Of a DNA stretch of 64,000 nucleotides, positions 4,307-32,438 are shown piece by piece. Both the position numbers and the translations under genes were made by a program. Below the pieces are notes generated by a model. It was not told the DNA's origin. It did no database searches and saw nothing but the letters and a program-made list of their open reading frames with translations. Each line of letters begins with the position of its first letter. Position 1 is the first letter of the stretch. This stretch comes from an uncultured Bacteroidales bacterium (GTDB lineage: Bacteria; Bacteroidota; Bacteroidia; Bacteroidales; Muribaculaceae), in NCBI GenBank assembly GCA_902776435.1, contig CACYQB010000008.1, positions 1-64,000 of the forward strand. Direction: 5' to 3'.

Positions 4307-7300
4307 TCACTCTCCGGGGACAGCCAATTTCTTGGCCTTTGTAGCCTCTTTAATGCCATCGGTCGTGATGGTGGCACGATAGACGTAGATGCCCCGCGGC
4401 ACGCGGCGGCCACCCGTGTCAATGAGATCCCAAGTCACTGGTGTTGAGGTGTACATGTCGCTACGGCCCGACTGGGTGGAACTCCACACGAGGCGTCCCA
4501 TCAAATCATAAACCTCGATTGTGATACTAACAACGGCATCGGGGCGGTTGTGCTTCACATAGAAAGCCGTCTCGACCGAAGAAGCAGCGCAATAGACATC
4601 GGCGATTTCGGGAGCAAGGCCGTTCACGACATTGAACGTAATGGTCTTCTCACTCACGTTGTTAAAGACGTCCCACACACGCAGCCTCAAGGAGTGCAAT
4701 CCAGACGGCAGATCCTTCAACTGATAGTTGATACTTCCCAATGTGCCCTCCTGGGCAAACATGGGTGTATAGAAGCTAATGAGGTCATTGTAACTGATGG
4801 TCCCGTCGAGGGTCAAAGTCATGCTATGGCCTACACCGGCGTTAGAGAAGTTCACACCGCTCTTGTCCCGCACAGTAGCCAGCAGCAAGGGCGACTCGTT
4901 GACGTCGGAGCCATCGGCAAACGTCGTCGTATTCAAGCCCATCGTGATGATCTCGGGGCCAATGGTATCGGCCTCAACCTCATCATCATAGCCATAGATG
5001 TAAAAATCACTATTGGCGCTATTGGCCTCGAGGGTGTCAAGGCTGTCATACGCGTAAATGTTAATCATCGCCGGACTATAGTTCTCGTATTCGTTATTGA
5101 CCTCGCTGGGGATAATCATCCGCACGTTAAAGTGTCCACCGATCACGGTGTCCACAGTGATTGCGAGACGGTTTGGACGGTCCGCATAGGTTACCGACTT
5201 GCCGTCTTCGTCACCATAACCATTCGTTGTAATCGAATCTTCGGCCCCAAACAGTGTCGAGACAATAGAGCCATTGAAATTGGTGGCCAACTCACCCTTA
5301 TAGTCTACAATATCACCTTCAAACTCAATGGTTTGCCGGGCTTCAAATACGGGCATGTCATCACTATTGACAGGCTTGCCGTTGATGGTCTTGATTTTAG
5401 CCGTACTGGAAGGATAAGCCAACCTCATGGCAGGGTCGCCAAACACAAAGTAGCGACGATGGTTGCTAGAGCCTGCATTGAGTGCATTTTTAGCAAGGCG
5501 CATGATGTCACCGATGCGTCGCGGACGGCCGTTATCATCTCTAGCGAAAGCCTGTCGGGCCACTGCATTACTCAATGCGCCATTGGATGTAATCAATGCC
5601 AATCGGGGCGGGCAAATCACAGCGATAGCGCCACCGTTGGGGTTAGTATAGACGAGTTCACCCGACGAAGTGACTGAATTATCGAAACGGCAAAACTCAC
5701 AAGTGGCGGCATACAAAACCGGCAGGCGCTTATAGAACAGATTTGTCTCGACGTCTGAACGCTTGAGCAGTCCCTCGGCAGTCCAGTTCTGGGTACTCGA
5801 GTGGCCGATATAGTTCCACCACATAACGCCCTCGTTGAGGAGGTTGAACATCTTGGCACGGGCATCAGGATAGGTGCGTGCCCCACCCTCGCTCACGGCA
5901 TTGAAAGCATCGATGAAGACATAGTTGTACATCAAGTTTTCACCACCATTCTCCTTGGCGATTTTAATCATATCCATGGATTGTTGCATGTGGATGCCCT
6001 TGTTCTCGTCGTCGGCGACAAACATTACCTGGTTTTTCCAAGAACCATATATCGGATTGGTCACATATTTCACCAACTTGTTGACAACGGCACGGGCCTC
6101 GCTCACGCTCCGGACAATCATACGCCCCACGGCTATGCTCATCTTGTCGTTAACATCAGTCGAACTGCCATCGTCCAATATGCCGAAATAGTCATCGCTG
6201 GTGTAAGATTCATCTTCATTGCTACTAAAATCGGACTGCCATGTCAGCAGATGCGGGAAGTTGAGCACTTCGGCATTGGTGCCTATCAGGCGGTTGTCAT
6301 AACTACCGCTACCGAAGAGCAAGAGATAACCCAACTTGTGGCCGTCACTCGTAGCGCCACGGTCATAGAACATCTTGCACAACCGACGGTAAGCCATCGC
6401 ATCACTCGTGCCGCTAGAGAACTCGTTGAAGACCTTCTCATGGTCAAGCACCAGTACACGGAAACCATCATTATCCTCGTGCAACATAGCCACCCTGTTG
6501 GCCTGTTCCATATAAGCACTCGGAGCCAGGATAATCATGTCAGGAGTGGGTTCGCCGTGAATATTCTGATTCTGGACCTCGCCCTTGAAATCAGGATGGG
6601 AATAGGTGCCTGATTCATCAAAGGCGATAAATTCCCTGCGGCCACTGGACTCGGGGCTGAAAGTCAATGCCCCCTCTCCGCCAGCGACAGCATTGAGTTG
6701 CAGTGGAGCATAGGGTACAGTGACATCCCATACATGTGTAGCGCTGCCAGCGCCTGACAAGCGATAGCAATTACCACTGCTTGCCTCGTCGTAGCCAAAG
6801 GCCAAGCTGCCGTTGTTGAGCCTCAATTGACGCTGATAATTGACCGTGATATAATCCAGCCTAGCCAGATAGACCGTTCCGCTGCTTGAAAAGTCAAGGG
6901 TGTAACTCAAGTCATTTGTGCCATCCAGGTTAATCACCTTCAGGCTGCCACTCTCCATATAGTGAGTGTGACTTAAATCGTCGGTTTTATTAATTATATC
7001 GCCACTCGTCACCGGTATTTGCGTTCCATTGTAACTGCATGCTACAGTGCTACCAGCGTTGGCGGTCTTAGCACCAAAAACAGTGTACACATATATCGGT
7101 TCTCCCGTTACCCGGTCTTCGAGTTGGAATTTAAAGGTCTGATTTCTGGTCGAGGCAAAGTTCTCACCCAAGAATTTGCGCCCCGTCTCTCCCGGATTTA
7201 TGATATCCTGCTCATGGTAGAGACGCCCCGTAAACGTGGTGACAGGATCTCCAGATGCCGGATTGTTGGTCGCTTTTTTCACGTCAATGTCACTGAAACG

Positions 7301-7759
7301 ACTGTCATTGGTGACCAGATAGGCGCCATATTCGGAATAAGGATTTTGCGTCTGTACGTGAACCATCGTCTTGGAGAGTTTCGACCATGTCGTTGGGCCC
7401 TGAGCATAGAAAAGGATCTGGTTATTGGTGCGGACAACAGGAATCTGAGGCAAATCGTCAGCATAATTGCCATCCATCGATTGGCTCAATGGTTTGCCAC
7501 CATAACCAAACACATGAATCTGGGACAAGTCACTGCCCAAACCCCAACTGCGGATATCCTCGGCGGTAATCTGATAGATACCGCTCTCCTTGACAGCAAT
7601 TTTAACCCACTTGCCTGTAGCCAGCTTGCTGTTGTCGGCATAGAATTCCTTATTTAATGCCTGCACAGGAACAGTATATGCCGCAAGCAACAACATGCAC
7701 ACGGCCATACGGGCGAAATATTTCAATAACTTGCTCATCATTGATATGTATAGTTTCAA
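4307..7759 (-). CDS. porU: Type IX secretion system sortase PorU
   Basis: PorU is the surface C25 peptidase that removes the C-terminal domain of T9SS cargo and attaches the cargo to A-LPS. This protein has 1150 residues, the usual PorU length. It has a signal peptide (an alternative start at 7741 gives a cleaner n-region), the PorU N-terminal motif TGKWVKIAVKESGIYQI, and a C25 domain with His653 (NYIGHSSTQNW) and Cys687 (AATCEFCRFDNS), the canonical PorU pair. The C-terminus is a T9SS type A-like domain (YDLMGRLVW ... PRGIYVYRA). A shorter C25 paralogue lies downstream at 1-2601. The phosphopantetheinyl transferase gene is 91 bases upstream and no separate promoter was seen. Confidence 0.9.
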   Translation of the reverse strand: MKLYISMMSKLLKYFARMAVCMLLLAAYTVPVQALNKEFYADNSKLATGKWVKIAVKESGIYQITAEDIRSWGLGSDLSQIHVFGYGGKPLSQSMDGNYADDLPQIPVVRTNNQILFYAQGPTTWSKLSKTMVHVQTQNPYSEYGAYLVTNDSRFSDIDVKKATNNPASGDPVTTFTGRLYHEQDIINPGETGRKFLGENFASTRNQTFKFQLEDRVTGEPIYVYTVFGAKTANAGSTVACSYNGTQIPVTSGDIINKTDDLSHTHYMESGSLKVINLDGTNDLSYTLDFSSSGTVYLARLDYITVNYQRQLRLNNGSLAFGYDEASSGNCYRLSGAGSATHVWDVTVPYAPLQLNAVAGGEGALTFSPESSGRREFIAFDESGTYSHPDFKGEVQNQNIHGEPTPDMIILAPSAYMEQANRVAMLHEDNDGFRVLVLDHEKVFNEFSSGTSDAMAYRRLCKMFYDRGATSDGHKLGYLLLFGSGSYDNRLIGTNAEVLNFPHLLTWQSDFSSNEDESYTSDDYFGILDDGSSTDVNDKMSIAVGRMIVRSVSEARAVVNKLVKYVTNPIYGSWKNQVMFVADDENKGIHMQQSMDMIKIAKENGGENLMYNYVFIDAFNAVSEGGARTYPDARAKMFNLLNEGVMWWNYIGHSSTQNWTAEGLLKRSDVETNLFYKRLPVLYAATCEFCRFDNSVTSSGELVYTNPNGGAIAVICPPRLALITSNGALSNAVARQAFARDDNGRPRRIGDIMRLAKNALNAGSSNHRRYFVFGDPAMRLAYPSSTAKIKTINGKPVNSDDMPVFEARQTIEFEGDIVDYKGELATNFNGSIVSTLFGAEDSITTNGYGDEDGKSVTYADRPNRLAITVDTVIGGHFNVRMIIPSEVNNEYENYSPAMINIYAYDSLDTLEANSANSDFYIYGYDDEVEADTIGPEIITMGLNTTTFADGSDVNESPLLLATVRDKSGVNFSNAGVGHSMTLTLDGTISYNDLISFYTPMFAQEGTLGSINYQLKDLPSGLHSLRLRVWDVFNNVSEKTITFNVVNGLAPEIADVYCAASSVETAFYVKHNRPDAVVSITIEVYDLMGRLVWSSTQSGRSDMYTSTPVTWDLIDTGGRRVPRGIYVYRATITTDGIKEATKAKKLAVPGE

Positions 7760-14442: not shown

Positions 14443-15063
14443 TCACCGAACGACGGCCACCTTGCGGCTGGAACGACGGCCATCGGGCCAAGTGGCGACC
14501 TGGATGGCCATCGGCACGCTATCGAGCGACTGGATGGGCTGTCCCTCCATGTTGAAGAAGTGCTCGTCAACGGGCTGTTCTTGCTGCTTTAATTCGATGA
14601 TTGAAGCCTGAGGCACCGTCACCGTTGTGGTATCGTCGTCAAAGAAAATGGTTTTGTTATTCATCGTCGCGCCACGTTGCCTCCACACGATGATTTCGCC
14701 GCCATTGAATTCAGGCAAGGCGTTAAATGTCAACTCCATGATAGCAGTATCGGCAGGAGGGAAACAAACCTTATGCGACGGGATCATGCCAATGGTCCAT
14801 ACACCATTCTTATAGTTTCCGAACGGCTCCATATCATATTCTCGTGAATATTGGGTGAGTTCTCTGTCAATGAGCCGAAGGCCCTCGGGCAAAGTCAAGT
14901 TGACCTGGATGCCACGCGTGGAGTCGCAGTTGGCCATCATCAGCGGAACCGTGATAGAGTTTCCCGGCTCAATCTCAAAGTCCTCGATATACACCACGTT
15001 GCGCTGGGCCATGGCCGCCATTGCCGCAATCACTGCCATGATGGCTAAAAACACTTGTCTCAT
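14443..15063 (-). CDS. Small cohesin-like domain protein with T9SS-like C-terminal tail
   Basis: A 206-residue protein with a signal peptide (VFLAIMAVIAAMAAMAQ). Residues about 24-150 read like a cohesin-type beta sandwich: IEDFEIEPGNSITVPLMMA, then RGIQVNLTLPEGLRLI, then TAIMELTFNALPEFNG. The last 40 residues (FFNMEGQPIQ ... ATWPDGRRSSRKVAVVR) match the short Bacteroidales T9SS sorting tail, also seen on the giant protein at 19959-26930. It lies 80 bases downstream of a CotH-dockerin gene and has its own promoter. Cohesins bind dockerins, so a receptor role is inferred but not shown. Other beta-sandwich families remain possible. Confidence 0.65.
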   Translation of the reverse strand: MRQVFLAIMAVIAAMAAMAQRNVVYIEDFEIEPGNSITVPLMMANCDSTRGIQVNLTLPEGLRLIDRELTQYSREYDMEPFGNYKNGVWTIGMIPSHKVCFPPADTAIMELTFNALPEFNGGEIIVWRQRGATMNNKTIFFDDDTTTVTVPQASIIELKQQEQPVDEHFFNMEGQPIQSLDSVPMAIQVATWPDGRRSSRKVAVVR

Positions 15064-15143: not shown

Positions 15144-17102
15144 TTAATGCGAACCGCTCAAGAGAAGGTCGATGAGGGTGGTGACGTCGTCGATGCTCAC
15201 ATTTCCGCTCTGGTCCACGTCGGCGGCAACGGGATTGATATCCGAGCCACCGCTCAGCAGATAGTCAATCAGCATGGTAACATCATCGATGTCCAACTTG
15301 CCGTTATCGTTGAGGTCGCCAGGAAGAGTTGTCGCCTCGGCTTTGATTCTCTCATAAACGGCCATGGCGCGTGCCCGCAACCATGCGGCGGCAAGTTGAG
15401 CCTGCTCGCCATAGTCGGTGTAATCATTCTTGATATACCAGCGGTTCATCAACAATGAGGGCAAGGCATAGTTATAGTACTCGATGCAGTAATCGCACAA
15501 CTCATCGATGCCGTGGTTATTGACGAAATTATCCCAGTGCCTATAGAGTTGTTGAACAATCTCGGGGTCATGGCGTATTGTGGTCATGAAATCGCGCTGC
15601 CAGTACTCCTTATCGGTCGTATAGTAGTCAATCGTAGGGTCACAAGTATAGTAGTTACGGTCGATGTCATAACCGAAGGCCCAATCGAAGTCCCATACGG
15701 GTCCGAAAATGAACTTGGTGCTGTCGTCCAGGATGTTCTCATGGTAGCACCAAACACTCTTAGGATTGAACATTTCAAAGTTGTAGATGTACTCATTCAG
15801 CATCATGTAGCGGGCCATATAGTCCGCATCGACATGGTCGGTGATATGGTCATTGTTCACGACAGCAGTAGTAAAGTATTCGAACCGATGCTCGACATCC
15901 TTCAGCTTCAGCACCGTTGACGCCGTATCAGCAAACTCTGGCTCGTGAACATTGACCAACAAGCCGGAGGGATAGGCCACGAACTTCTGTCCCGGCTCGC
16001 AATCATAATTCACGTCAATCTCGAGCAGTGCGGCAGCAGTTTCATCAGGAATATCAACACTGTTGTTGGCAAAGCCGATTTTCTCAGTGAAATTGTAGCT
16101 TCCCTTGTAAACGCCGTTGATGTACAGGTCAACGGGAATGATGTGGTTGGGGGCAGGAGTGCCGATGATGCTGCCCGCCTTATGGCCGAAGGCGTTGGTC
16201 AGCATCGAGCCCCACATCCTGTTGGCAAGGAGCACCCAGCTCTTTCCCTTCTTGAGGCCCAGGGGTTTTACCTTGTTCTTGAATTTGAGTCGATAGGGAT
16301 TCTTTCCATTAGGGTCGCCGGTCCATGAATTGTGTCCACGTCCCTTGATCTGAACTGAATCGGTCATCGACGGGAAAATGCCTTGGCCATCGATGATAAT
16401 CTCGGCATCCAGATAGTAGTCCCTGCTGGAGATATTCTCGCCGTTCACCGTATTGATGTCGATGCGCGGCACTGCCGTGTTGCCATCGGTGAGGAAGTTG
16501 ACGTGGACGGTGTATTGCCGTCCATAAGGCATCATGCCATATTGCCCGTCACCCAGGGGTGTGAGGATCATGTCGCCCTCGTAGCCCACAGTATAGACCC
16601 TGTCGGTGGCAAACGAATAGCGGTTGACGTTGCTGTGCTGTTCATCGGCGCCCATGTGAACAACGGCAAGCGAGTCGGACACAGTGAACGACGGTGTGAG
16701 CCATTTGCCGATGCCCAAGACATCAACGTTGACGCGGTTAGCGGTGATGACACCGTCGGCATCAATAATCACCTGATGGTTGTACTTGTTATCCAGACTG
16801 AAGCTGGTGAACTCGGGCATCTCTTTATTAAGCGAGTGGCCCAAGTAGCTGATCGTGCTACTGATATAGGTGTACACCTGACCATCGCGTGCGGTTACCG
16901 TGAAATAGCCGCTTCCGGAATTCACGCTCATGACGCAGGAGTCCGGAAAGACATGCACATTCCCCGTTTTCAAATAAACAAAGGTGGTTTCGGCATGAGC
17001 CACCTGACCACACATCAAAGCAAGGGCAGACAGAATGCCCAAGGCCATGCTGCGGAAGCGCAGCCCATGACAGCGGCTGGAAAATGTTGATTTCATATTC
17101 AT
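15144..17102 (-). CDS. CotH kinase family protein with C-terminal dockerin repeats
   Basis: A 652-residue secreted protein. After a signal peptide and about 200 residues of beta-rich sequence comes a CotH domain: IKGRGHNSW, then KPLGLKKGKSWVLLAN, VYKGSYNFTEKIG, and the nucleotide/metal motif VWDFDWAFG near residue 468. CotH proteins are atypical kinases first known from Bacillus spore coats; the bacterial gut substrates are unknown. The last 60 residues hold two dockerin calcium loops (DLNDNGKLDIDDV and DVDQSGNVSIDDV), each followed by a helix TxLIDxLLSG. It lies between a C10 protease gene and the cohesin-like gene. Confidence 0.9.
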   Translation of the reverse strand: MNMKSTFSSRCHGLRFRSMALGILSALALMCGQVAHAETTFVYLKTGNVHVFPDSCVMSVNSGSGYFTVTARDGQVYTYISSTISYLGHSLNKEMPEFTSFSLDNKYNHQVIIDADGVITANRVNVDVLGIGKWLTPSFTVSDSLAVVHMGADEQHSNVNRYSFATDRVYTVGYEGDMILTPLGDGQYGMMPYGRQYTVHVNFLTDGNTAVPRIDINTVNGENISSRDYYLDAEIIIDGQGIFPSMTDSVQIKGRGHNSWTGDPNGKNPYRLKFKNKVKPLGLKKGKSWVLLANRMWGSMLTNAFGHKAGSIIGTPAPNHIIPVDLYINGVYKGSYNFTEKIGFANNSVDIPDETAAALLEIDVNYDCEPGQKFVAYPSGLLVNVHEPEFADTASTVLKLKDVEHRFEYFTTAVVNNDHITDHVDADYMARYMMLNEYIYNFEMFNPKSVWCYHENILDDSTKFIFGPVWDFDWAFGYDIDRNYYTCDPTIDYYTTDKEYWQRDFMTTIRHDPEIVQQLYRHWDNFVNNHGIDELCDYCIEYYNYALPSLLMNRWYIKNDYTDYGEQAQLAAAWLRARAMAVYERIKAEATTLPGDLNDNGKLDIDDVTMLIDYLLSGGSDINPVAADVDQSGNVSIDDVTTLIDLLLSGSH

Positions 17103-17221: not shown

Positions 17222-19579
17222 TCAGCTCAGGAGAATGTCGATGAGAGCGGTGACGTCCTTGATAGAGATGGTACCGTTGCCGTCCACGTCAGCATTTGCA
17301 ATGTTGACATCGTCGGGCGAGCCACCCAGCAGGTAGTCAATCAAGGCAGTGACATCCTTGATCGTCACAATGCCATCGTCGTTCACATCGCCAGGAATCA
17401 CCTCGGGCTCCTCAGGAAAATGGATGGTATAGAATGGCGTTTGGGCAAGACGGATCTGCCTACCCTCGCTATAATAGATCGCGTAAATGAAGTAACTCCA
17501 TCCGTCAATGACATTCTCGAGTTCAACAGGCACAGTAACGGTCTCACCCGGAAGTAGCGAGACAGGCACGTTCTTGGTCTGAACATTGCTGCCATAGTTG
17601 TCATATGAGTTCTTGTAGAGCTTGACGGTGATATCCTGGTTGTAGGGGGTAGTGCCCTCGTTGGTGATGGTGAACTCGACAGCAAACTTGTTATCGTTGA
17701 TGACGTAGTTATTCTCATTCATCACCTGCGTGCTGGCGCTCAAGCTGGCAGCAGGCATTGCATTGATGACGAAGTCATGGGTGAGGAACGGGTCGCTGCC
17801 GTTATCGTTCCATGACCAGGTCACCATATAGGTGCCCGAGCTAGTGGGTGTGAACTGGAAGGGGATGTCGCCTGTCTCACCCGGTTGCAGACCGACGTAG
17901 CCAGCTGCCGAGAAGGTGTTGTTAACAAACATATACATCAACTGGCTGCTTGTCTGACCATTGTTGGTCATGTTGACAAGGATATCGACGGGGCGGCCAT
18001 TGTACAGGCTGCCTGCCGCGGTGATGCTGTTGACGGTGTAGTCGCGGGTACCGGCTGTGCCATGGCCTGTGACGGTGCAACTGTCGCCATCGATGGTCAC
18101 CTCAATGTAATTCTGGTCGGAACCAATGCAGGGGCGCCAGTTATCGGCAAACAGTTCGCTATAGATGGGCACGATGCGGTAAGTGCCCTCGGTGATGTTC
18201 TTGCCGAACTCCAGTTTCTGGTTTACAGTGCTCATGTAGTAGTGAGGTGACAGACCAGTGACATAGGTATTGTAAAGGACACTCACCAAGTTATTGCCCT
18301 GATAGAAACCCCAGCCATAGCTGGCAGACATATCCTTAACGGTGTAGTTAATGAATCGGCCCGAAACCGTCACGTTAAACGGGAAATTGCTGCCAATGCG
18401 CGAGGTGGTCATGCCATCGAGCGTCACGTTGCCTGCCGTAAAGGCAAAAGGAGTTTCGCTCTCCTCGCCTGGCTCAATGCCCATGATGGCTGCTTGATTG
18501 AGGATGTAACCATAGGAGCCGCTGATGCTGCCCGTACCCTGCTCGTCGGGATTCATCACATTGAGCAGGTAGTAGCCATTGCTCAAGCCATTCCAGCCCC
18601 AATTGATGTGGAACATGCCGTTGCCGTCATATCCATCACAGATAAAGGCATGGCCACCAGTCTTCTTGTCGCCGGTGTAGATAATGGGGCGTCCTGCGGC
18701 CAGCTCGGCATAGAGCAGGTCGTTCCAACCCTCGGTGCTGTAGTTCTCGCGGCCCTCGATGCGGGCAGAGGGCTTGTAGTCAAAGTAGGTGTAAATCAGT
18801 TCAGGGATGCGAAATGACCAACCTGACGACACGCCAAGCAAGAAATCCATCTGTAATGCCTGGTCACAATACAGGTTGAGCGTGGCGGCTGCAACCGCGC
18901 CATCACTTGTGAGGTCATTGGTCAGATAGGTGTCCTGCATGACATTCCAGCCAAAATCAACAACCGGCAGTTCAGACATAACAATTTGGTACGTCTTGCT
19001 GGTATAGGCAGGGATGGCCTTGGTGGGTCGAGCGGGCCATTGCCAGTAATACATCACCTGGGCCAACGCAGTACCCACACAGCCCACGACGGCACGTTCA
19101 CCGTTGGACATCATGGGCAGCAAGGTATTGTAAGGGGCATTTTGCGACCACTCTGCAGTGACCAGCGGGCTGATGGCCGAGCCAGCTCGGTAAACAGGTG
19201 CAGATTTGGCACCACGGGCCAGGTCTTCGATTTGGGCCGCATAGCTCTCAAGCAGGTCTTGCATGGCCTCGGGCAGGTCTTGGGCATCAAAGGAGCCTCG
19301 CTCGCTATAGCCCAGGATGGCAGGCGCGCTGTCATCGCCAGCGACGATGACATAGCCGTCATTGCCGTTGAACACATAGTAAGCGGCCTTATCGCCAGCC
19401 GTGCTGCCCAGGCGAGGGGCTTTGTGAGCCATCTTGATGGAGGTGGAGGGCAAGGCACGCGATGCCATGAATCGGGATGCGATGGCGCGTGCTTGGGACT
19501 CGTTGATCGACTCGGCCCATGCGGGAATAGCCACCACAAGGGACATCAAAAACACAAATAAAGTACGAATGATTCTCAT
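17222..19579 (-). CDS. C10 family (streptopain-like) cysteine protease with dockerin repeats
   Basis: A 785-residue secreted protease. A signal peptide is followed by an inhibitory propeptide (Spi/I69-like, ESQARAIASRFMASR), then the C10 domain with catalytic Cys167 (AVVGCVGTALAQVMYYW) and His310 (GGHAFICDGYDG, then FHINWGWNG). Immunoglobulin-like beta domains occupy about residues 400-720. The end carries two dockerin loops (DVNDDGIVTIKDV and DVDGNGTISIKDV). Relatives include Prevotella interpain and P. gingivalis PrtT. It is transcribed from its own strong promoter and is similar over its length to the protease at 28971-32438. Confidence 0.93.
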   Translation of the reverse strand: MRIIRTLFVFLMSLVVAIPAWAESINESQARAIASRFMASRALPSTSIKMAHKAPRLGSTAGDKAAYYVFNGNDGYVIVAGDDSAPAILGYSERGSFDAQDLPEAMQDLLESYAAQIEDLARGAKSAPVYRAGSAISPLVTAEWSQNAPYNTLLPMMSNGERAVVGCVGTALAQVMYYWQWPARPTKAIPAYTSKTYQIVMSELPVVDFGWNVMQDTYLTNDLTSDGAVAAATLNLYCDQALQMDFLLGVSSGWSFRIPELIYTYFDYKPSARIEGRENYSTEGWNDLLYAELAAGRPIIYTGDKKTGGHAFICDGYDGNGMFHINWGWNGLSNGYYLLNVMNPDEQGTGSISGSYGYILNQAAIMGIEPGEESETPFAFTAGNVTLDGMTTSRIGSNFPFNVTVSGRFINYTVKDMSASYGWGFYQGNNLVSVLYNTYVTGLSPHYYMSTVNQKLEFGKNITEGTYRIVPIYSELFADNWRPCIGSDQNYIEVTIDGDSCTVTGHGTAGTRDYTVNSITAAGSLYNGRPVDILVNMTNNGQTSSQLMYMFVNNTFSAAGYVGLQPGETGDIPFQFTPTSSGTYMVTWSWNDNGSDPFLTHDFVINAMPAASLSASTQVMNENNYVINDNKFAVEFTITNEGTTPYNQDITVKLYKNSYDNYGSNVQTKNVPVSLLPGETVTVPVELENVIDGWSYFIYAIYYSEGRQIRLAQTPFYTIHFPEEPEVIPGDVNDDGIVTIKDVTALIDYLLGGSPDDVNIANADVDGNGTISIKDVTALIDILLS

Positions 19580-19958: not shown

Positions 19959-22900
19959 TTATCTGAGAATCTTTTTAGAAATCATGCTTCCATCCTTATA
20001 ACGGATCACACGGATGTTGATGCCGTCAAACGGAACGTCGCTCTCCTGGCCCATGATGTTGTAGTAACGGATACTATCAATCTCGGTGGACTCACGCGGC
20101 ATGATCTCACGCACACCAGTAATGATGGAGTTCTCTCCCAGGTCAAGAGGATAAACCTGGTAATGAGACCAAGGCTCATCCGTTTTAGCCTGGAGATGAT
20201 CAAGCGGGAATTCGGATTTGCCATCTCTCATCGAAGCCTTTTCTGGTGCACCATATGATCTGCAAGTTGTCTGAATGGCAACATGGAACAAATAAGCAGA
20301 GTCTGTATGAAGAATATTTTCTCCAGGCTTGCCATAGTCATACGGATCATTTGACAAACGGTTGTAGTTCCAATCAGGCACAAAGAACGCACCGTTCAAG
20401 TCGTAGCCATTATGGACATAAGTCTGGCCATTCTCCTCGAATCTAGCGGGCTCATAGGTCTCAAAGACATCAGCAGTGATATACCTATTACCCTCATGGT
20501 CTTCCTTATATGCATCCCGGAATTTCAGCTTGCCTAACCAGACAGCCCAAACCTGAGCCACCTCTCGATCCTTAGGATTCATGAAGAAGAACCTTGGATT
20601 TGCACTAGTATCATAAACAGGATCTTCACCAGGTTCAACGCCTCCATCAACGACAATACCAAACTCGCCACCGATATTATAATCCAAGAAGTTGTTGGGC
20701 AAATAGTGGTTATACATGTAGTCATAAGGTTTTTCCTCACGAGGATCACCCCTATATCCAGGATAGCCCAGAGAAGTCGTAGATTCCGGTTCGAGGACTA
20801 CAGGCCATGCTTCTGGATCATTGCCCACTCCAATGATGTGTCGGCCTTTATAGAAAACACTATCCAAGAGCATGCCATTCCCATAGTAATCAACAGTGTA
20901 AGTATCACATTCATATCGACCAAGAATTGTACCAGCCTCGATCTTGTGGTCAACATATTTTGCAACATTGGCAAAGAAATCCTTCTCGTCCATATCCTCA
21001 GGTTGCTCAAACTCAAGGATTACCCAGTTGCTCTGGTCCCAGTCATGCTTTTGCAGCTTCATATTCTGACGCACATAGTCCGTCCGGTCCGTAGGAATTT
21101 CAACATAGTCATTGGCTTTGTAGGGAGATTGATCCTTAGCCCACAAGAGATTCTTGACAGCCCATACACCGATGAGTTCGTCTGCCACTCTCACATTGTG
21201 GCCATCTTGAACTTGCTCATCCCATTGCTCAATAACTTGCAGCGGGAACTCCTGAATGTTCAGACCGAAAACAGCCCATATAATGACGTCATTACTAGGC
21301 ATTACGAAGCTGTAGGTGTGGTCGTCAATTTTAGTGATTTCAATGTCTAAGACTGTGCTATCCGTGTCAGTTATATACAGTGACTCCACCGCATGCTCAA
21401 ACTCGTCATTGGGCCATACTCCAAACATTACAGTATGATCTGGAACAGCCGCGGGAGCAACGACGATCTCACCAATTATGGGATCAACTTCGGGCAAGCA
21501 ACGCCAATCAATCAGGTATCCCGGCTCAAAGGTGGCCGTAATGGTAACATCATGGCTCGGCATGATGAAAGTATAAAAGCCCTCTGGATCATAAGTGAGA
21601 TCTACAGTTTGATCCGTACCATCTAACGTGACGACAAGGCTAGAGAGTGCATAACCCTCATCTAAATTAGGTTCAGGAGTAACGGTGACGCGACAGCCTT
21701 CGGCACCAGTTGAGCCTTGCGCGCCATGCCCCAATACAAGAGAACCTGCGTCTTCGTTGGGATTAACAACAGTGGTAATATTGTATACTTTGGCAGGTTT
21801 ATAAAGCCTAACGTTGTCTGGCGTATAAATAGTAGCATTTTGCATTCTGAAGGTACCATCCATACCCATCTCTTTATCATAGAAGACTCGCCATCTGTTT
21901 TGATAATCAACATAATCATAAAATGAACCTACACCACCATTCAAAAGACCAGTGAAATAAAATGGCTTAACATCATCCCTCGAATTGTACAATGCAATAT
22001 AGCCTTGATTTGAGTCATCCGGGAATAGGTCACGACCAAGATAAGCGTTTCCGGTCTTTGCATATGCGGCTCTACCGTAATTACTAACAGTGAGGTCTTC
22101 GAGCTTGAAGAAACATGCATTATGATCCAGTATCACATAGGTAAAATCATGACTATAATATGCATCAGATGCCCAACCCACAACATAGGTTGATGTAAAG
22201 TGTTCATCAGGAGCGATCTTATTCAAGACTTTTGAATCGTTAGGATAATGGTAATTAGCAGCTACAATGGTATAATACTCTCCTTCGACTATCTCGCTTA
22301 CATCGTTCACACGCTTGAAGACAACGCCTTCAAATGCTTCTTCGTAGTTGGCAGTCACTGTCACATTGGCCTCGGGCATTCTGAAGCTGTAAGATCCGTC
22401 ACCGATGTCGGTCACAGTAACCTCACCGCTACCATCGCCGGTCACAGTGAAACCAGTAAGATTCCATCCAAAGTTGGGGCTGGGGGTAACAATGACATTG
22501 GCACCGGCATGAGAATAGTTGTTATTGCCTTCGGTAAACACCTGACCGCTCAACTCAATCGTACCGCCTTCAGCCGGATTATTCTCGGTGAAAATCTGGT
22601 AACCATCGATGCTGAAGTTCGCCACGATAACAACATCTCCATTTGGCATAGTGAAGGAGTACTGGCCATTCCCATCAGGAGTCAAGGTGGTAGTCACTTG
22701 AGTTACCAGGTTGGTAACAGTCACTTCACCGGCCTGATAGTACGTGTTGGGCGTGACAGTGAATGTCACAGTTTGTCCGGCTATTGCTTGGTTATCAGCC
22801 AGATTAATCAAACCAGTCCCTTCGGGAACAACTCGAGTAGTAATATTCCAAGGTAGTATAGCATTATAGTGTACCGTCACGGTCACGTCACTAGTCGGCA

Positions 22901-25900
22901 TCACTATGCTGAATGTGCCATCGCCATTGCTGACAACATTGACAGGGTCATTATTGGCAGCCATAGCAGTAACATCACCCACACTATAGCCAAATTCAGG
23001 TACTGGGGTTATCACTACAGTCTGACCTCCATCAGAATAGAAGTTACCGTTTTCTACCTTCACATGACCCGAGAGGGTGATAGAACCCGCATCTGTCGGA
23101 TCGTTAACCAGATAGATCTGGTACTCACCGTCTGGTACAAATGTGACATCAATGGTCACAGGGGCTTCGGGCATGACAAATGACCACGTGCCATTCTGAT
23201 TGTCTGTCACATTGAGGCTGGGCGAAGTGTTAATCTGGCCAACCTCAAATCCCGGATAGGGAGTAACGGAGAACGTCACTGTGGTACCTTCCACGGGATA
23301 TCTGGTAGTCGGGAGGGTTCCGTCAGGCATGACGAATCCTGCTACACCACCATCTACAGGTGTCCAATTGATGGTAGCCTCGTGAACATGTCGGTACTCA
23401 ACGGTGATAGTGACATCATTACCAGGCATGGTAAAGCTATATGTGTGCCCGTCGAGAGTCCATGTTATCGTCTCATGAGTGTCATCGTTAGTCACCATTA
23501 CACTGTAGATATAATAATTATCATAAGGCGGGAGGGGGGTACCAACCATGAAGGTTACGGTCTCGTTGGTATCGGCATAATTTTGCCCAATGATAGAACC
23601 AACGCCTTCAGGGATAAGCACCTTCGATATCGTGTGCAACGCATAATAGTTGGCATTGATTGTCACATCAAACTTAGGCATCACAAAACTATAGGTGCCA
23701 TCACCATTGTCAGTGCAAGGCACGATTTGGCCATTCATGTCGATGGACACTTCCACACCATCAAGCGCATAACCAGTATTGCTGGACACACTGAAGGTGA
23801 CGGTTTGTCCTGCTATTTCAAGGTTATCGGTCGCTGTTGGGCTAGTGATACTGATAGTGCCAGCACCCTCGGGATTGATATGCGTCGAGATACTGTGAGG
23901 ATCAACACGATATACACCAGTGCCTTCAACAATAATAAAACCAATGTCAATCATACCTTTTACGGTAGTCTGTCCCTCTCTGTTAATGACGATTCGGTCA
24001 GATGGCTCCAAGGGCCAGTCATCATCTGCACCTGTAAAGGTATCATCCTTAATGTGATATTGTTGCTGAAGTTCAGCGAGACCATGAGCCCGATCAATCT
24101 CATTAACCTGCGACTGGATGTCGCTGTCGATAACTACGATATCTCCTGGCTCAACAATCGTCGGATTCTCTTCCGTTCCTCCGGCAGGCGTAAAGGTGAT
24201 GTGCTTCGGATATTCGGTAATGCTCATCAGGGTCTTAGCCTTGTTGACCGTTACACGGTATATGCCAGAAGGAATCTTGAAAGAATTGTTGAAATGGCTC
24301 GTAGCGTTCTCATCATTGCTAAGGGGAACGTCTACCGAATTTCCGTCCACAGGATAGCGATCGGAGGTTGCTGCCAAGCGTCCAGACACCTGAGACCAGT
24401 CACTGTTAGTCTGAGTGCGTTGAGTCCAATCGAAGTCTGAGACGTGTGTCGCTAAGCTAAAGAAGTCAAAATATGATAGTGCTCCATTTTGACCCGTATA
24501 GTAAACATCAAGATAGTACTGCTCGTTTTCAGCATCATAGGTAAACTTGGGTCCAGAGGGTGCCCAAATGGTACGACCCATAATGGTACCGAGCATGTAA
24601 AGGTCACCAATGATCTCATAGTTGGCAGTGCCAGGTACTGAGATATAGCCGATGTTAGCAGTAGCATTGACGGTGGTAATATCCTCCTCGGTAATCGTCA
24701 AGGAGTTACCCGTAACAACCTGAGAAGTCATGTTGCCATTAGTCGTGCTATAATTGTAGGTCGCAGCAGGCTCAGCAATGCCATAAGGCTGGGCAATGCC
24801 TTGGACTATAGTGCCAAGGTCGCTGGTGAAGGACACGTCAATCGACTCACCCAGCATTGCCGACGCACCGCTCTCGGGAGTGAACGTCAGAGATACAGGA
24901 ATCTCTTCGATACTCATCTGAGTCATCGCCTGGTTGACCTTGATGCGGTAAACGCCAGCAGGAATCTTGAAGGCATTGTCCTCAGTGGAGCTACCTGCAT
25001 ATAAAGGCACTTGAGTCGAGCCAGCCTGAACCTCGTAGTTGTTCCACTGAGCAGCCAGACGATAATCGCCCTTAGTCAGATCCCAATTACCCTCATTGGA
25101 TGCTGCTGTCTGCCAGGTGATACCAGTGTCGATGCGTCTGGCGAGACTGAAGAAGCCAAATTGATTGCCCGTAGCCTCAATACCCTTGAAGTAAACATCA
25201 AGGTAATACTCATTGTTGGTACCATCATAGTTGAACTTGGGACCAGCGGGAACCCAATAGGTACGTCCCATAGCAGTACCAAGCAGATAGAGGTCAGGAG
25301 CCAAGGTATAATTGGCTGTCAAGGTCACATCATTGCCCGGCATGGTAAAGGTATAAACGCCGTTTTCATCGGGCGTGAGGGTTTCTGTCACACCATTGTT
25401 GGTGTAAGTAACCGAGTTCAGCGAATACCCCTCAGCAGGCTCAATTGAGAAAGTAACCCGCTTCCCTGCGTTGGACATTGCCTGACCGTTAAAGTCGGTA
25501 TAGCCATTGATGAAGTTGAAGTCACCACCATCAGCAGGGTTGGACACCGTAAAGATATTATTGGGCGCAACAAAGTTCGCCGTAATCTTCACGTTATTCG
25601 CCGGCATCGTGAAACTATAGTCGTTACCGAAGTCACTAGTGTTAACAGGATCCAGTATAGTCCCTTGATCATTGGGATCATCAGGATTCGTCACAATCAC
25701 CTGCCCCACGCCATAGCCGTCGGTAGGTCCAACGAAGAAGGTCACATTGTCAAATTGCTGCGACGTACTATTACCCTGGTTATCGGTAAGGACGCCACTG
25801 CCCAAGGTGATATAGCCACAGTTGTCATTAGGCAAGCACTCGGTAGTCACCTGGTAAGTACTAGCAGGTTTATATAGGTAAACGCGCTGATAGATGGCAT

Positions 25901-26930
25901 CAGAGTTCGTTGAACTGTTTGAATCCATTACCCTGAATAGGCTACCGCCATTATAGTGTCGAATAGCCATATCCGACGAATTATAAACTTCGCTATTGGT
26001 ATGATAAAACTTGAGCAACGCATTATAATTCGTGCCAATAGATATTGATACCCTGAAAAAGTAAAGATTGAACTCTTCTGTCGGCAAATTTGGCACGGCC
26101 CACAGGTTATAACCTTTATTTGTTCCCGAGCCTGAGGTAAATTCGCCATTTCGACGGCGAATGTAATTATCACCAACTTTGAGATGCCAAGGACGTGTAG
26201 TTGTAGTGCTTGCTGCACGCTCTAATTTAATAAGTGACACCTCATCAGTTACTTTCACTTTATTATAAACATCAATATTCCCCTGCTGATAATGATCCAA
26301 CAAGGTGACAGGAGTAGAGCTAAAGGATTCATAAGAATCTCCTGTATGATTTTCCACCTTACCTAAGGCTCTTGAGGATTGCTTACTCACTAATGCATAA
26401 GTATTTCCGGCAGCAATCTCATCGCTGGATTTAACCAGTTCAAAAATGTCGCCGAACTCTTTTTCGTAGGTAATCTCGACCGAACCGAAGCGCACGGGCC
26501 TTCCCTTGGTCATGAACGCAACATTTTTGGAGTCAACTGAACCACCAACCCAAGTGCCAATGTAGCTACCTGGGGCAGAAGTATAAGTGCCAGTAGGTGT
26601 GTAAGCTCCCACATCGCCTTCACTTATGGTCGATGGACCCCAATAGAATGCATCCAAGTCATTTTCAGTTGTATTATCCAGACAGTGGAATACAATCTTC
26701 TTGATGACATAGTTATTCGAACGGATGTAAAACACAACTTGCTGGTGCTCAACCAGGTAATTGGGGTTGTTCATACCGCTAGAGAAGGTCATCGTTACGC
26801 CCTCCTTGTCACAATAATAGACTCCCAACTGCGAGATGTCGTTGCGGGAGATCGTTACGGTCTTCTCGCCTGCCCATAGCGGGACCGCCATGGCAAGCAT
26901 CATGAAAAATAGTAATAGCTTTTTCATCAT
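19959..26930 (-). CDS. Giant secreted repeat protein (InlB B-repeat-like, SusE-like modules) with T9SS-like tail
   Basis: A 2323-residue protein with a signal peptide. From the N-terminus it has: a unique beta domain (20-157); a ~195-residue module ending in YLYKPA (160-357); two repeats ending near 455 and 543; two SusE-like modules (546-680 and 776-908) opening LYLLGTAMGRTYWVPAGPKF or close; six repeats ending near 1099, 1181, 1266, 1358, 1442 and 1532; a second module ending VRLYKPA (1533-1713); two further repeats (1802, 1890); and a ~390-residue unknown domain. Each of the ten repeats ends in a motif like YSFTMPGNDVTITANY, typical of divergent InlB B-repeats. The last 40 residues (RYYNIMGQE ... 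SMISKKILR) look like a T9SS sorting tail. The role is likely surface adhesion or glycan binding; no catalytic motif was recognised. Confidence 0.88.
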   Translation of the reverse strand: MMKKLLLFFMMLAMAVPLWAGEKTVTISRNDISQLGVYYCDKEGVTMTFSSGMNNPNYLVEHQQVVFYIRSNNYVIKKIVFHCLDNTTENDLDAFYWGPSTISEGDVGAYTPTGTYTSAPGSYIGTWVGGSVDSKNVAFMTKGRPVRFGSVEITYEKEFGDIFELVKSSDEIAAGNTYALVSKQSSRALGKVENHTGDSYESFSSTPVTLLDHYQQGNIDVYNKVKVTDEVSLIKLERAASTTTTRPWHLKVGDNYIRRRNGEFTSGSGTNKGYNLWAVPNLPTEEFNLYFFRVSISIGTNYNALLKFYHTNSEVYNSSDMAIRHYNGGSLFRVMDSNSSTNSDAIYQRVYLYKPASTYQVTTECLPNDNCGYITLGSGVLTDNQGNSTSQQFDNVTFFVGPTDGYGVGQVIVTNPDDPNDQGTILDPVNTSDFGNDYSFTMPANNVKITANFVAPNNIFTVSNPADGGDFNFINGYTDFNGQAMSNAGKRVTFSIEPAEGYSLNSVTYTNNGVTETLTPDENGVYTFTMPGNDVTLTANYTLAPDLYLLGTAMGRTYWVPAGPKFNYDGTNNEYYLDVYFKGIEATGNQFGFFSLARRIDTGITWQTAASNEGNWDLTKGDYRLAAQWNNYEVQAGSTQVPLYAGSSTEDNAFKIPAGVYRIKVNQAMTQMSIEEIPVSLTFTPESGASAMLGESIDVSFTSDLGTIVQGIAQPYGIAEPAATYNYSTTNGNMTSQVVTGNSLTITEEDITTVNATANIGYISVPGTANYEIIGDLYMLGTIMGRTIWAPSGPKFTYDAENEQYYLDVYYTGQNGALSYFDFFSLATHVSDFDWTQRTQTNSDWSQVSGRLAATSDRYPVDGNSVDVPLSNDENATSHFNNSFKIPSGIYRVTVNKAKTLMSITEYPKHITFTPAGGTEENPTIVEPGDIVVIDSDIQSQVNEIDRAHGLAELQQQYHIKDDTFTGADDDWPLEPSDRIVINREGQTTVKGMIDIGFIIVEGTGVYRVDPHSISTHINPEGAGTISITSPTATDNLEIAGQTVTFSVSSNTGYALDGVEVSIDMNGQIVPCTDNGDGTYSFVMPKFDVTINANYYALHTISKVLIPEGVGSIIGQNYADTNETVTFMVGTPLPPYDNYYIYSVMVTNDDTHETITWTLDGHTYSFTMPGNDVTITVEYRHVHEATINWTPVDGGVAGFVMPDGTLPTTRYPVEGTTVTFSVTPYPGFEVGQINTSPSLNVTDNQNGTWSFVMPEAPVTIDVTFVPDGEYQIYLVNDPTDAGSITLSGHVKVENGNFYSDGGQTVVITPVPEFGYSVGDVTAMAANNDPVNVVSNGDGTFSIVMPTSDVTVTVHYNAILPWNITTRVVPEGTGLINLADNQAIAGQTVTFTVTPNTYYQAGEVTVTNLVTQVTTTLTPDGNGQYSFTMPNGDVVIVANFSIDGYQIFTENNPAEGGTIELSGQVFTEGNNNYSHAGANVIVTPSPNFGWNLTGFTVTGDGSGEVTVTDIGDGSYSFRMPEANVTVTANYEEAFEGVVFKRVNDVSEIVEGEYYTIVAANYHYPNDSKVLNKIAPDEHFTSTYVVGWASDAYYSHDFTYVILDHNACFFKLEDLTVSNYGRAAYAKTGNAYLGRDLFPDDSNQGYIALYNSRDDVKPFYFTGLLNGGVGSFYDYVDYQNRWRVFYDKEMGMDGTFRMQNATIYTPDNVRLYKPAKVYNITTVVNPNEDAGSLVLGHGAQGSTGAEGCRVTVTPEPNLDEGYALSSLVVTLDGTDQTVDLTYDPEGFYTFIMPSHDVTITATFEPGYLIDWRCLPEVDPIIGEIVVAPAAVPDHTVMFGVWPNDEFEHAVESLYITDTDSTVLDIEITKIDDHTYSFVMPSNDVIIWAVFGLNIQEFPLQVIEQWDEQVQDGHNVRVADELIGVWAVKNLLWAKDQSPYKANDYVEIPTDRTDYVRQNMKLQKHDWDQSNWVILEFEQPEDMDEKDFFANVAKYVDHKIEAGTILGRYECDTYTVDYYGNGMLLDSVFYKGRHIIGVGNDPEAWPVVLEPESTTSLGYPGYRGDPREEKPYDYMYNHYLPNNFLDYNIGGEFGIVVDGGVEPGEDPVYDTSANPRFFFMNPKDREVAQVWAVWLGKLKFRDAYKEDHEGNRYITADVFETYEPARFEENGQTYVHNGYDLNGAFFVPDWNYNRLSNDPYDYGKPGENILHTDSAYLFHVAIQTTCRSYGAPEKASMRDGKSEFPLDHLQAKTDEPWSHYQVYPLDLGENSIITGVREIMPRESTEIDSIRYYNIMGQESDVPFDGINIRVIRYKDGSMISKKILR

Positions 26931-31900: not shown

Positions 31901-32438
31901 TCACCTGAGCCATGGCAACCGCCACACAGCCGACATAGGCATGGGCATTATCGCTGCCGTTGACATGGGGTAAAAGCACATTGTAGGGCAAGCCTTGACC
32001 CCAGTTCACGTTGAGCATGGGGGCGATGGCTTCACGCGAGGAGGTACGCACATCCGGCTTGGCACCAGCGACAATGGCGTCGATCTGGGCGGTATAGCCA
32101 TCGAGCCACTCCTGCATCGCAGCGGGGATGTCGGCAGCGTCAAACGCGCCCTGGTCGCTGTAACCGAGCACAGCCGGAGCGCGGTCGTCACCCGCCACAA
32201 TCACGTAGCCACCCGACGTGGCGTTGAACACATAGAAGGCGGTCTTGTCGCCACTGGGGATTGACGTGCCCCTGAGCGGTGCCTTGTAGGCAGTCTTCAG
32301 TGTCGCAGATTGCCTGGAATGCGAGGCCATGAACTGCGAGGCCACGGCACGCGCCTGGTTCTCATTGACTGTTGCCGCCCATGACATTCCCATCATGGTC
32401 AAGCAAACAAGAAAGATGAAACAGCTAATTCTTTTCAT
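28971..32438 (-). CDS. C10 family cysteine protease with InlB-like repeats and dockerin repeats
   Basis: A 1155-residue secreted protease. It has a signal peptide, a Spi-like propeptide (NENQARAVASQFMASHSRQ), a C10 domain with catalytic Cys171 (AYVGCVAVAMAQVMSYW) and His317 (SAGHAFVCDGYDG, FHINWGWAG), and Ig-like domains. These are followed by two InlB-like repeats ending IYSFMMPAVDVMITA and VYTFVMPDADVIVNV, and then a module from VFELVTTRDSIVEGGIYVL to RIWLYKL that also occurs twice in the giant protein. Two dockerin loops (DVNDDGVVTIKDV and DVSQDGSITIKDV) end it. It is about 370 residues longer than the paralogue at 17222, and the added length is mostly the shared modules. Confidence 0.92.
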   Translation of the reverse strand: MKRISCFIFLVCLTMMGMSWAATVNENQARAVASQFMASHSRQSATLKTAYKAPLRGTSIPSGDKTAFYVFNATSGGYVIVAGDDRAPAVLGYSDQGAFDAADIPAAMQEWLDGYTAQIDAIVAGAKPDVRTSSREAIAPMLNVNWGQGLPYNVLLPHVNGSDNAHAYVGCVAVAMAQVMSYWQYPARPTKTIPGYTSYPGRTYEVTMPSLAPMDFDWENMQNTYYTNDSTSTQCMAVANFMLYSTTAMQSSFGLTSTGSYTRNIPAKLIEYFGYKNSAHYIYREDFSTEGWEDVIYAELAAGRPVAYGGNKQSAGHAFVCDGYDGEGLFHINWGWAGKSNGYFLLNLLNPSAEGIGSAAGAYGYVKGQGAAIGVEPDYDGTDGEAAFSFENLSINSSNTTRSSASSNFSVTVSGRFINKTNVTSMFRQGWGLYNSDGELVNVLFIRSTTSALSNGEYITVSSRALNFGAGITEGTYRILPIYSIYPSEDYRPCIGSDVNYIEVTFGGTYSCSIKGYGTAGSTTKYTVNSCTTEGTLNHGKPVTVTLNLKNAGTSTNDLIYMFVDGTFNAMGLANIAAGESGDLVYRFTPTTAGSKTLTFSLNESGSSPFYTHRVTINTMPTATLDVSYRILGITDEDNRIITADHYTIIADVTNTGTTTYDEDFSVRLYRINNNETNVGTELQNQTQHLILAPGESTSLQFDFDHDLIDGWRYFSYLYYYSDGGTVSKGTKWYTLNFPTGPVETYQVTTQVVPAEGGVITFTGGVNEGEAQVGKKVSFTVTPSEHYSITGVQAITASGDTVMLNHNATTGIYSFMMPAVDVMITATAIASHDISVVQNIETAGRVLVDAASAVTGQTVTVTAKPNVGWRIASMTVTDAASSAVESTVGDDGVYTFVMPDADVIVNVGFERSTGSVFELVTTRDSIVEGGIYVLATKYYDKVMKFHAPGEATFGSTPVTEWLNEEKTLVKVSDDACFIQMLAVNPDTIRHGATSGDRTNAFLSYGNGYLTTDNGNVVVTENLTNLNRAGMFVSTNESNYLVRFFNEATGASSDFMTIRYDYAGDKFRILNYSSDNQQRIWLYKLVPDEPVEPEVLLGDVNDDGVVTIKDVTTLIDYLLGGDAVVVNLLNSDVSQDGSITIKDVTALIDLLLSGNN

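What the first reader, a model, noticed from the sequence alone, without database searches (positions are those of the whole stretch)
14443..15063. Cohesin-like protein with a T9SS tail next to dockerin-tailed enzymes
Four proteins in this window end in paired dockerin repeats (two CotH, two C10 proteases). Dockerin partners in Bacteroidales are mostly unknown. Here a small secreted protein with a cohesin-like beta sandwich and a T9SS-style C-terminal tail lies directly downstream of a CotH-dockerin gene. A surface-anchored cohesin capturing dockerin enzymes would be a cellulosome-like display system sorted by PorU.
Basis: inference. Interest (0 to 1): 0.8.

Follow-up and report, generated by a model that had tools for sequence, protein, structure and literature searches.

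The report
T9SS-tailed cohesin among dockerin-tailed proteins
A gut Bacteroidales bacterium that tags well over a hundred of its proteins with dockerin "plugs" also makes a small protein with a predicted matching "socket" (cohesin) fold and an export-type tail, which offers a testable answer to what dockerins do in these bacteria.

Summary
The 206-aa ORF at 14443-15063(-) is real. Its predicted structure matches cohesins: the first 40 PDB ranks are cohesin entries. Its sequence links to PF00963 proteins of its genome, although Pfam misses it. It ends in a tail that recurs at the C-terminus of other proteins of the genome (27 of 30 loci, 5 of them model seeds). The genome has SprA and PorU-type sortases, at least 150 dockerins, but only 18 cohesins in 13 ORFs; this is the only one of those without a dockerin. 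Relatives carry 5-10-cohesin scaffoldin-like proteins, three with a standard T9SS tail. Of 158 order-level genomes, 30 of 32 dockerin carriers have a cohesin, against 17 of 126 others. Best reading: a one-cohesin surface anchor for dockerin proteins. Against: 11 of 30 orthologs lack the tail, the tail is no standard T9SS hit, the dockerin-face test was inconclusive, binding is untested, and export of dockerin proteins is unexplained. The sampled cargo looks proteolytic or adhesive, so "cellulosome" does not fit its content.

The parts
14443..15063 (-). 206-aa cohesin-fold protein with C-terminal sorting-type tail
   Evidence: ORF; orthologs; dN/dS
15007..15063 (-). Sec-type signal peptide (residues 1-19, read by eye)
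   Evidence: sequence; hydrophobic N-terminus in the aligned orthologs
14614..14997 (-). cohesin-fold beta sandwich (residues 23-150)
14446..14577 (-). C-terminal tail (residues 163-206), T9SS-like, recurs on other proteins of the genome
   Evidence: absent in 11 of 30 orthologs
15144..17102 (-). CotH protein with C-terminal dockerin (dockerin at 15159-15323)
17222..19579 (-). C10 protease with C-terminal dockerin (dockerin at 17228-17395)
28971..32438 (-). C10 protease with C-terminal dockerin (dockerin at 28986-29153)
50505..52235 (+). CotH protein with C-terminal dockerin of a second (DVN) class (dockerin at 52065-52223)
19959..26930 (-). 2323-aa InlB-repeat protein with the same kind of C-terminal tail (19968-20108; one of the seeds of the tail profile)
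4307..7759 (-). PorU-type T9SS sortase (candidate processor of the tail)
   Evidence: (942 bits), Peptidase_C25
1..2601 (-). second PorU-type sortase, cut by the contig start
13625..14368 (-). DUF3108 gene, constant neighbour (adjacent in 30 of 30 orthologous loci; in L015 on the other strand and side)

Best explanation
The protein is a minimal, one-cohesin surface anchor. Shown by computation: a cohesin fold, a signal-peptide-like N-terminus, and a C-terminal tail shared by many proteins of a genome that has the T9SS translocon and sortase. Inferred: Sec carries it to the periplasm, T9SS exports it, a PorU-type sortase attaches it to the outer surface, and its cohesin domain captures dockerin-tailed proteins in calcium. 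In this genome it would work beside the LRR-Coh-Doc-Coh-tail and Coh-Doc proteins. The dockerin would act as a detachable surface tag, and the T9SS tail would be needed only on the cohesin anchor.
For: Fold. Sequence link to PF00963 proteins of the same genome (phmmer 6e-10 and 2e-8 in 1270 ORFs); family profile A2 to R. flavefaciens ScaB cohesin 5n5p (4e-4). Tail at the exact C-terminus in 27 of 30 fetched loci (26 distinct genes; 5 are seeds of the profile). SprA 2663 bits, four PorU-type genes over cut-off. At least 150 dockerins (150 of 281 candidates were scored, all 150 matched); 35 of 45 distinct dockerins read carry D-V/I-T-x-L-I-D in both halves (the sample leans to the best-scoring ones). 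Order-level co-occurrence 30 of 32 against 17 of 126, p 6e-18 without correction for relatedness. Relatives: 6xCoh-Doc beside Doc-Coh-tail; proteins with 8, 7 and 5 cohesin domains ending in TIGR04183 over cut-off. Purifying selection on domain and tail in one pair.
Against: The tail is absent in 11 of 30 orthologs, with at least five changes on the tree (bootstrap 4-6), while the cohesin stays. TIGR04183 and PF18962 do not see the tail; its profile match to standard T9SS tails is weak (hhalign probability 29%, E 6e-4). Conservation is not higher on the 8-3-6-5 sheet than on the other sheet (2.68 against 2.75 bits). This subfamily's strand-8 motif (W-K-x-R-G-S-T) differs from the other cohesins of the genome, so its ligand may differ. 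The CotH-dockerin neighbour is not constant (10 of 30). Dockerin proteins mostly end in the dockerin (21 of 30) and have no T9SS tail after it, so their way across the outer membrane is unexplained. Part of the co-occurrence comes from proteins that hold both domains; the A2 family alone is in only 10 of the 32 dockerin genomes. The multi-cohesin count in relatives rests on the A2 profile: PF00963 saw cohesins in one of the four such proteins scanned, and their folds were not modelled.
Confidence: 0.48

Rival explanations
1. A dockerin-binding cohesin that works in the periplasm, as a cap or chaperone for dockerin-tailed proteins before export; the tail is dispensable and is being lost.
For: Signal peptide and cohesin are kept while the tail is gone in 11 of 30 orthologs, with only weak remnants near the stops (best E 0.0025); it is the only one of 13 cohesin ORFs of the genome without a dockerin.
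Against: Where present the tail is under strong purifying selection (dN 0.009, dS 0.239, one pair) and matches tails of many other proteins.
Confidence: 0.17
2. A cohesin-fold beta sandwich that has lost dockerin binding and recognises another ligand (another protein or a glycan), displayed by the tail.
For: Strand-3/strand-8 motifs (RGxQFN, WKxRGST) diverge from other cohesins of the genome; no Pfam hit; no excess conservation on the dockerin face; the constant neighbour is DUF3108, not a dockerin gene.
Against: Lives in a genome with at least 150 dockerins; belongs by sequence to a family whose other members sit in Coh-Doc and scaffoldin-like proteins.
Confidence: 0.22
3. Ordinary surface beta-sandwich adhesin module; the resemblance to cohesin is only the common jelly-roll fold.
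For: Many beta-sandwich domains resemble each other; ranks 41 and 42 of the fold search are a CLIPPER domain and an integrin.
Against: The first 40 ranks are cohesin entries, and sequence profiles link the family to PF00963 members and to 5n5p independently of fold.
Confidence: 0.08

Closest known systems
ScaE of Ruminococcus flavefaciens (anchoring scaffoldin with a C-terminal sortase signal; PMC4081043, passages read)
   Same: A cohesin protein fixed to the cell envelope by a C-terminal sortase signal, holding dockerin-bearing partners; that it is small with one cohesin is recalled
   Different: Gram-positive sortase and cell wall instead of T9SS; holds ScaB and CttA; no sequence relation tested
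Ca. Stygibacter (Cloacimonadota) scaffoldin-like protein with C-terminal attachment domain (PMC8542988, passages read)
   Same: Proposed cohesin-dockerin complex on a Gram-negative surface held by a T9SS-type CTD; peptidases and GHs with C-terminal dockerins
   Different: Another phylum; 3,755-aa multi-cohesin protein with CBMs, not a single cohesin; also only predicted
Ruminococcus albus: dozens of dockerins, at most one cohesin protein (PMC6118326 and PMC4081043, passages read)
   Same: Many dockerins, few cohesins; a cohesin proposed to hold single enzymes on the cell rather than build a cellulosome
   Different: The R. albus protein is Coh-Doc and strain 8 has none; 18 cohesins here
Camel-rumen Bacteroidetes bins with dockerins and some cohesins (PMC6071333, passages read)
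   Same: Reports cohesins in certain Bacteroidetes; Bin136 (Bacteroidetes) has 5 dockerins and 1 cohesin entry and is named among bins with two to four tandem cohesins
   Different: No T9SS tail or anchoring is described in the passages; two other dockerin-rich Bacteroidetes bins there (49, 58: 11 each) have 0 cohesins
Dockerins without recognised cohesins in bovine-rumen Bacteroidetes MAGs (PMC7260996, passages read)
   Same: Same kind of host group and the same puzzle, stated as open in print
   Different: Those authors recognised no cohesin in those MAGs; here 47 of 158 order-level genomes have one by PF00963 or the A2 profile
T9SS type A cargo (TIGR04183, PF18962)
   Same: C-terminal beta module ending near K-V, found on many secreted proteins
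   Different: Tail is about 45 residues, lacks the N-terminal 'YPNP' half, and is not detected by either model

Membership tests
Cohesin | Jelly-roll beta sandwich of about 130-140 aa like solved cohesins | tested here: met
Cohesin | Detectable sequence homology to accepted cohesins | tested here: met
   phmmer to PF00963 proteins of the same genome 6e-10 / 2e-8; family profile to 5n5p 4e-4
Cohesin | Scores over the PF00963 cut-off on its own | tested here: not met
   no Pfam family at E<=1
Cohesin | Conserved dockerin-binding 8-3-6-5 face | tested here: inconclusive
   sheet means 2.68 and 2.75 bits; strands 3 and 8 conserved, strand 5 not; no coordinates to tell outward residues
Cohesin | Calcium-dependent dockerin binding | not testable with these tools
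   no complex prediction or assay available
T9SS type A cargo | Organism has the T9SS translocon and sortase | tested here: met
   SprA; PorU-type
T9SS type A cargo | Transferable C-terminal module on many secreted proteins | tested here: met
   27 of 30 fetched loci (5 of them profile seeds) end within 1 residue of the hit
T9SS type A cargo | Match to TIGR04183 or PF18962 | tested here: not met
   hhalign of 24 tails to 11 TIGR04183-matching tails probability 29%
T9SS type A cargo | PorU-dependent cleavage and surface attachment | not testable with these tools
   experiment needed
Cellulosome | Multi-cohesin scaffoldin in the same genome | tested here: not met
   at most 2 cohesins per ORF in G000; 5-10 in relatives
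Cellulosome | Dockerin-bearing cellulases/hemicellulases | tested here: inconclusive
   10 of at least 150 dockerin proteins sampled: C10 x2, CotH x2, PAD, alpha-amylase-CBM26, DUF285/LRR x2, two with no other Pfam family

The most novel reading that the evidence does not exclude
In a branch of Bacteroidales the dockerin has taken over from the T9SS tail as the general surface tag: well over a hundred proteins (proteases, CotH proteins and adhesins among those sampled) carry a dockerin, and only a few cohesin proteins carry a T9SS tail and hold them on the cell. It would be a T9SS-anchored cohesin-dockerin display system, with lineage-specific dockerin codes and true scaffoldins in sister lineages, and a lone cohesin such as this one as its simplest anchor.
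Probability: 0.35. Interest if true: 0.85.

Novelty: new variant of a known kind. Interest (0 to 1): 0.6.

Why it matters
A 2020 rumen gene catalogue says the role of dockerins in Bacteroidetes is unclear because no cohesin is recognised in those MAGs (PMC7260996, passage read), and a 2026 paper calls the co-presence of both in 78 Bacteroidetes MAGs surprising and in need of study, no cellulosome system having been described outside Firmicutes (PMC12997984, passage read). Here a cohesin is found in 30 of 32 dockerin-bearing genomes of the order, and several cohesin proteins carry T9SS-type tails. This gives small, expressible domains with which the question can be tested at the bench.

Tried and rejected
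Toxin A matches of the PDB sequence search were taken as chance: short stretches, none passing on its own; not followed. The idea that Pfam is blind to Bacteroidales cohesins was tested and dropped: PF00963 alone finds them in 41 of 158 genomes, though in the own genome it sees 3 (2 over cut-off) against 18 with the A2 profile. T9SS presence as a correlate of dockerins was uninformative: SprA is in 150 of 158 genomes anyway. Gene neighbourhood as evidence of pairing was dropped: CotH-dockerin is directly upstream in only 10 of 30 loci (one locus, L029, had almost no upstream DNA). Remnants of the tail near the stops of tail-less orthologs: only weak matches (best E 0.0025). In one search the script counted L031 as tailed by mistake; one search repeats the count with 19 tailed and 11 tail-less rows (5 changes). 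In one search the script's second class (10) lumps 4 DVN-type and 6 internal dockerins; the split is mine, read. The cohesin-dockerin complex could not be modelled: the structure tool takes single proteins and no altered sequence. Cargo was counted on 10 of the 30 dockerin loci fetched, not on all 150.

Full report
What is there. The ORF at 14443-15063 on the minus strand encodes 206 aa. It begins with what looks like a Sec-type signal and lies 80 bp downstream of a CotH-dockerin gene (15144-17102), which itself follows a C10-protease-dockerin gene (17222-19579). Two more dockerin proteins lie in the window, a C10 protease (28971-32438) and a CotH protein (50505-52235); all four dockerins are Pfam hits.

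Fold. No Pfam or NCBIfam family matches the 206-aa protein at E up to 1. With an alignment of 12 sequences (window plus loci of the search for related loci) AlphaFold2 gives pLDDT 84.2 and pTM 0.64: a well-predicted beta sandwich at residues 23-150, a low-confidence linker and a small tail domain. In Foldseek against the PDB the first 40 of the 50 ranks shown are cohesin entries, E 4e-8 to 1.3e-4; one of them (2o4e) is titled only as a protein-protein interaction module of a clostridial GH84. Sequence agrees: phmmer links the protein to the PF00963-bearing proteins of its own genome (6e-10 and 2e-8 in a set of 1270 ORFs), and a profile of 13 such domains (A2) finds a R. flavefaciens ScaB cohesin (5n5p, 4e-4) and an archaeal cohesin (2xdh, 0.027) in the PDB; the other four hits, all T7-type endonuclease I at E 0.1 or more, I take as chance.

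Tail. A profile of ten tails (A3; five of the seeds are from the own genome) matches 31 places in the own genome at E up to 0.01. Of the 30 fetched loci, 27 end within one residue of the match (26 distinct genes, the five seeds included); the other three lie 5, 9 and 35 residues from the end of the ORF chosen. The open frames range from 122 to 2626 aa; of ten scanned with Pfam eight had no family and two had Cleaved_Adhesin and DUF4465. So the tail is a transferable C-terminal module. Standard T9SS models do not see it, and a profile of 24 such tails compared with 11 TIGR04183-matching tails (eight of the own genome, two of them below cut-off, and three of G103) gives probability 29%, E 6e-4. 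The genome has SprA at 2663 bits and four PorU-type sortase genes over cut-off, two of them in this window. I take the tail as probably a short T9SS variant; that is inference.

Orthologs. 89 of 101 genus genomes have some match at E up to 0.001 and 40 (own included) have one with E below 1e-30. In the 30 loci fetched, DUF3108 is adjacent in 30, and CotH-dockerin lies directly upstream on the same strand in 10; with wider flanks a dockerin gene lies upstream within about 1.5 kb, on either strand, in 5 of 7 loci. Nineteen of 30 orthologs have the tail and 11 do not (sequences; count on the tree: 5 changes, bootstrap range 4-6, at least 2 forced by well-supported branches). I read these as repeated losses, because several truncated copies still end in the first residues of the tail; the direction was not tested. 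Where the tail is present it is under purifying selection in the one close pair (dN 0.009, dS 0.239; whole gene 0.023 and 0.146).

The dockerin side. Pfam Dockerin_1 matches all 150 candidates that were scored, of 281, so 150 is a lower bound. Of the 30 fetched, which are the 30 best-scoring, 21 sit within 10 residues of the C-terminus; the other nine are followed by a sulfatase-modifying-factor-like region (4, by eye), a cohesin (2), a T9SS-type end (2; one a below-cut-off TIGR04183 match, the other by eye) or 38 residues (1). Of 45 distinct dockerins read (those 30, the window's four and those of cohesin proteins), 35 carry D-V/I-T-x-L-I-D in both halves; of the other ten I read four as a D-V-N class and six as an internal class that lies next to cohesins. 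Ten sampled carriers are C10 proteases (2), CotH (2), a PAD, an alpha-amylase with CBM26, DUF285/LRR proteins (2) and two without another family.

The cohesin side. The own genome has 18 clear cohesin domains in 13 ORFs (a 19th match at 0.004 is left out). Their layouts are LRR-Coh-Doc-Coh-tail, Coh-Doc, Doc-Coh-tail and similar; the window protein is the only one without a dockerin. In one search nine other genomes of the genus show several matches in one frame of 916-927 aa, and a tenth (G070) in a frame of 633 aa; none of the ten is among the 40 with the window ortholog (chance 0.005 if genomes were independent, which they are not; the match list was cut, so more may exist). I read four of these loci: a 914-917-aa protein with six cohesins and a C-terminal dockerin, beside a Doc-Coh protein of 572-573 aa where complete, whose end is a below-cut-off TIGR04183 match. 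In three of them the same four-gene cluster is seen. In two of those three genomes five other dockerin proteins were found nearby; they read like T-S-A-D-I-T-A-L-Y-N-Y-L-L, as does the scaffoldin's own dockerin. Further off, genome G103 has proteins of 2466, 3771 and 1239 aa with 8, 7 and 5 cohesins by the A2 profile, all ending in TIGR04183 over cut-off; G143 has a frame of at least 1716 aa with 10 cohesins that runs off its contig. Pfam's own cohesin model saw only one of the four multi-cohesin proteins given to it (L151:11022-14741; not L151:3477-10877, L153 or L100), and no fold was predicted for any of them, so their cohesin label rests on the A2 profile.

Co-occurrence. In the same 158 order-level genomes, dockerins occur in 32, PF00963 in 41, the A2 profile in 12, either cohesin measure in 47. 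Thirty of the 32 dockerin genomes have a cohesin (exceptions G153, G195), against 17 of 126 without dockerins (Fisher 6e-18). With A2 alone the figures are 10 of 12 A2 genomes with a dockerin against 22 of 146 (1.6e-6). Relatedness is not corrected for, and proteins with both domains add to it. SprA is in 150 of 158 and so says nothing.

Function. I think the protein is a one-cohesin surface anchor for dockerin-tailed proteins (0.48). Fold, tail, machinery and possible partners in the genome are shown by computation; binding, export and attachment are inferred. The strongest points against it are the tail's absence in 11 of 30 orthologs, a strand-8 motif unlike that of the other cohesins of the genome, no excess conservation on the dockerin-binding sheet, and the unexplained export of dockerin proteins, most of which have no T9SS tail after the dockerin.

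Literature. Four printed statements frame it: no recognisable cohesin in dockerin-bearing rumen Bacteroidetes MAGs, role unclear (PMC7260996, passages); cohesins in certain camel-rumen Bacteroidetes, with Bin136 named among bins with two to four tandem cohesins (PMC6071333, passages); co-presence in 78 Bacteroidetes MAGs, to be investigated (PMC12997984, passages); a CTD-anchored scaffoldin proposed for Cloacimonadota (PMC8542988, passages). So cohesins in Bacteroidetes as such are not new. A 2024 survey of cellulosome bacteria names Bacillota and one PVC member in the passages I read (PMC11557425). My ten searches brought up no paper that, in title, abstract start or the passages read, describes T9SS-tailed cohesins in Bacteroidales; the library holds only open-licence papers, so this is not proof of absence. 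Bensoussan 2017 and Svartstrom 2017 are known to me only through citations in papers whose passages I read.

Noticed in passing
window 1-2601 and 4307-7759 (-): Two PorU-type sortase genes close together, the first cut by the contig start; four such genes over cut-off in the genome. Why four sortases is unexplained.
   Followed up: partly
L093, L094, L095, L100; L161, L165, L170: 914-917-aa proteins with six cohesin domains and a C-terminal dockerin; in three genomes in a four-gene cluster with a Doc-Coh protein and two tail proteins.
   Followed up: partly
L151:3477-10877, L151:11022-14741, L152:1619-12934, L153:4706-9855: Multi-cohesin (5-10) scaffoldin-like proteins in other families of the order, three ending in a TIGR04183 T9SS tail.
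   Followed up: partly
L121-L150: A short C-terminal tail on some 26 proteins of this genome; TIGR04183 and PF18962 did not recognise it on the window protein.
   Followed up: partly
L061, L102, L103, L111, L112, L115; L161, L165, L170: A third, internal class of dockerin sits beside cohesins in cohesin-bearing proteins; similar ones occur in a lineage whose enzyme dockerins differ.
   Followed up: no
L034, L035, L038, L042: Dockerin followed by a region that looks like a formylglycine-generating/SUMF1 domain (by eye, not tested by Pfam).
   Followed up: no
genome G185: PF00963 matches in open frames of 8081 and 6522 aa, with 169 dockerin candidates (38 scored) in the same genome.
   Followed up: no
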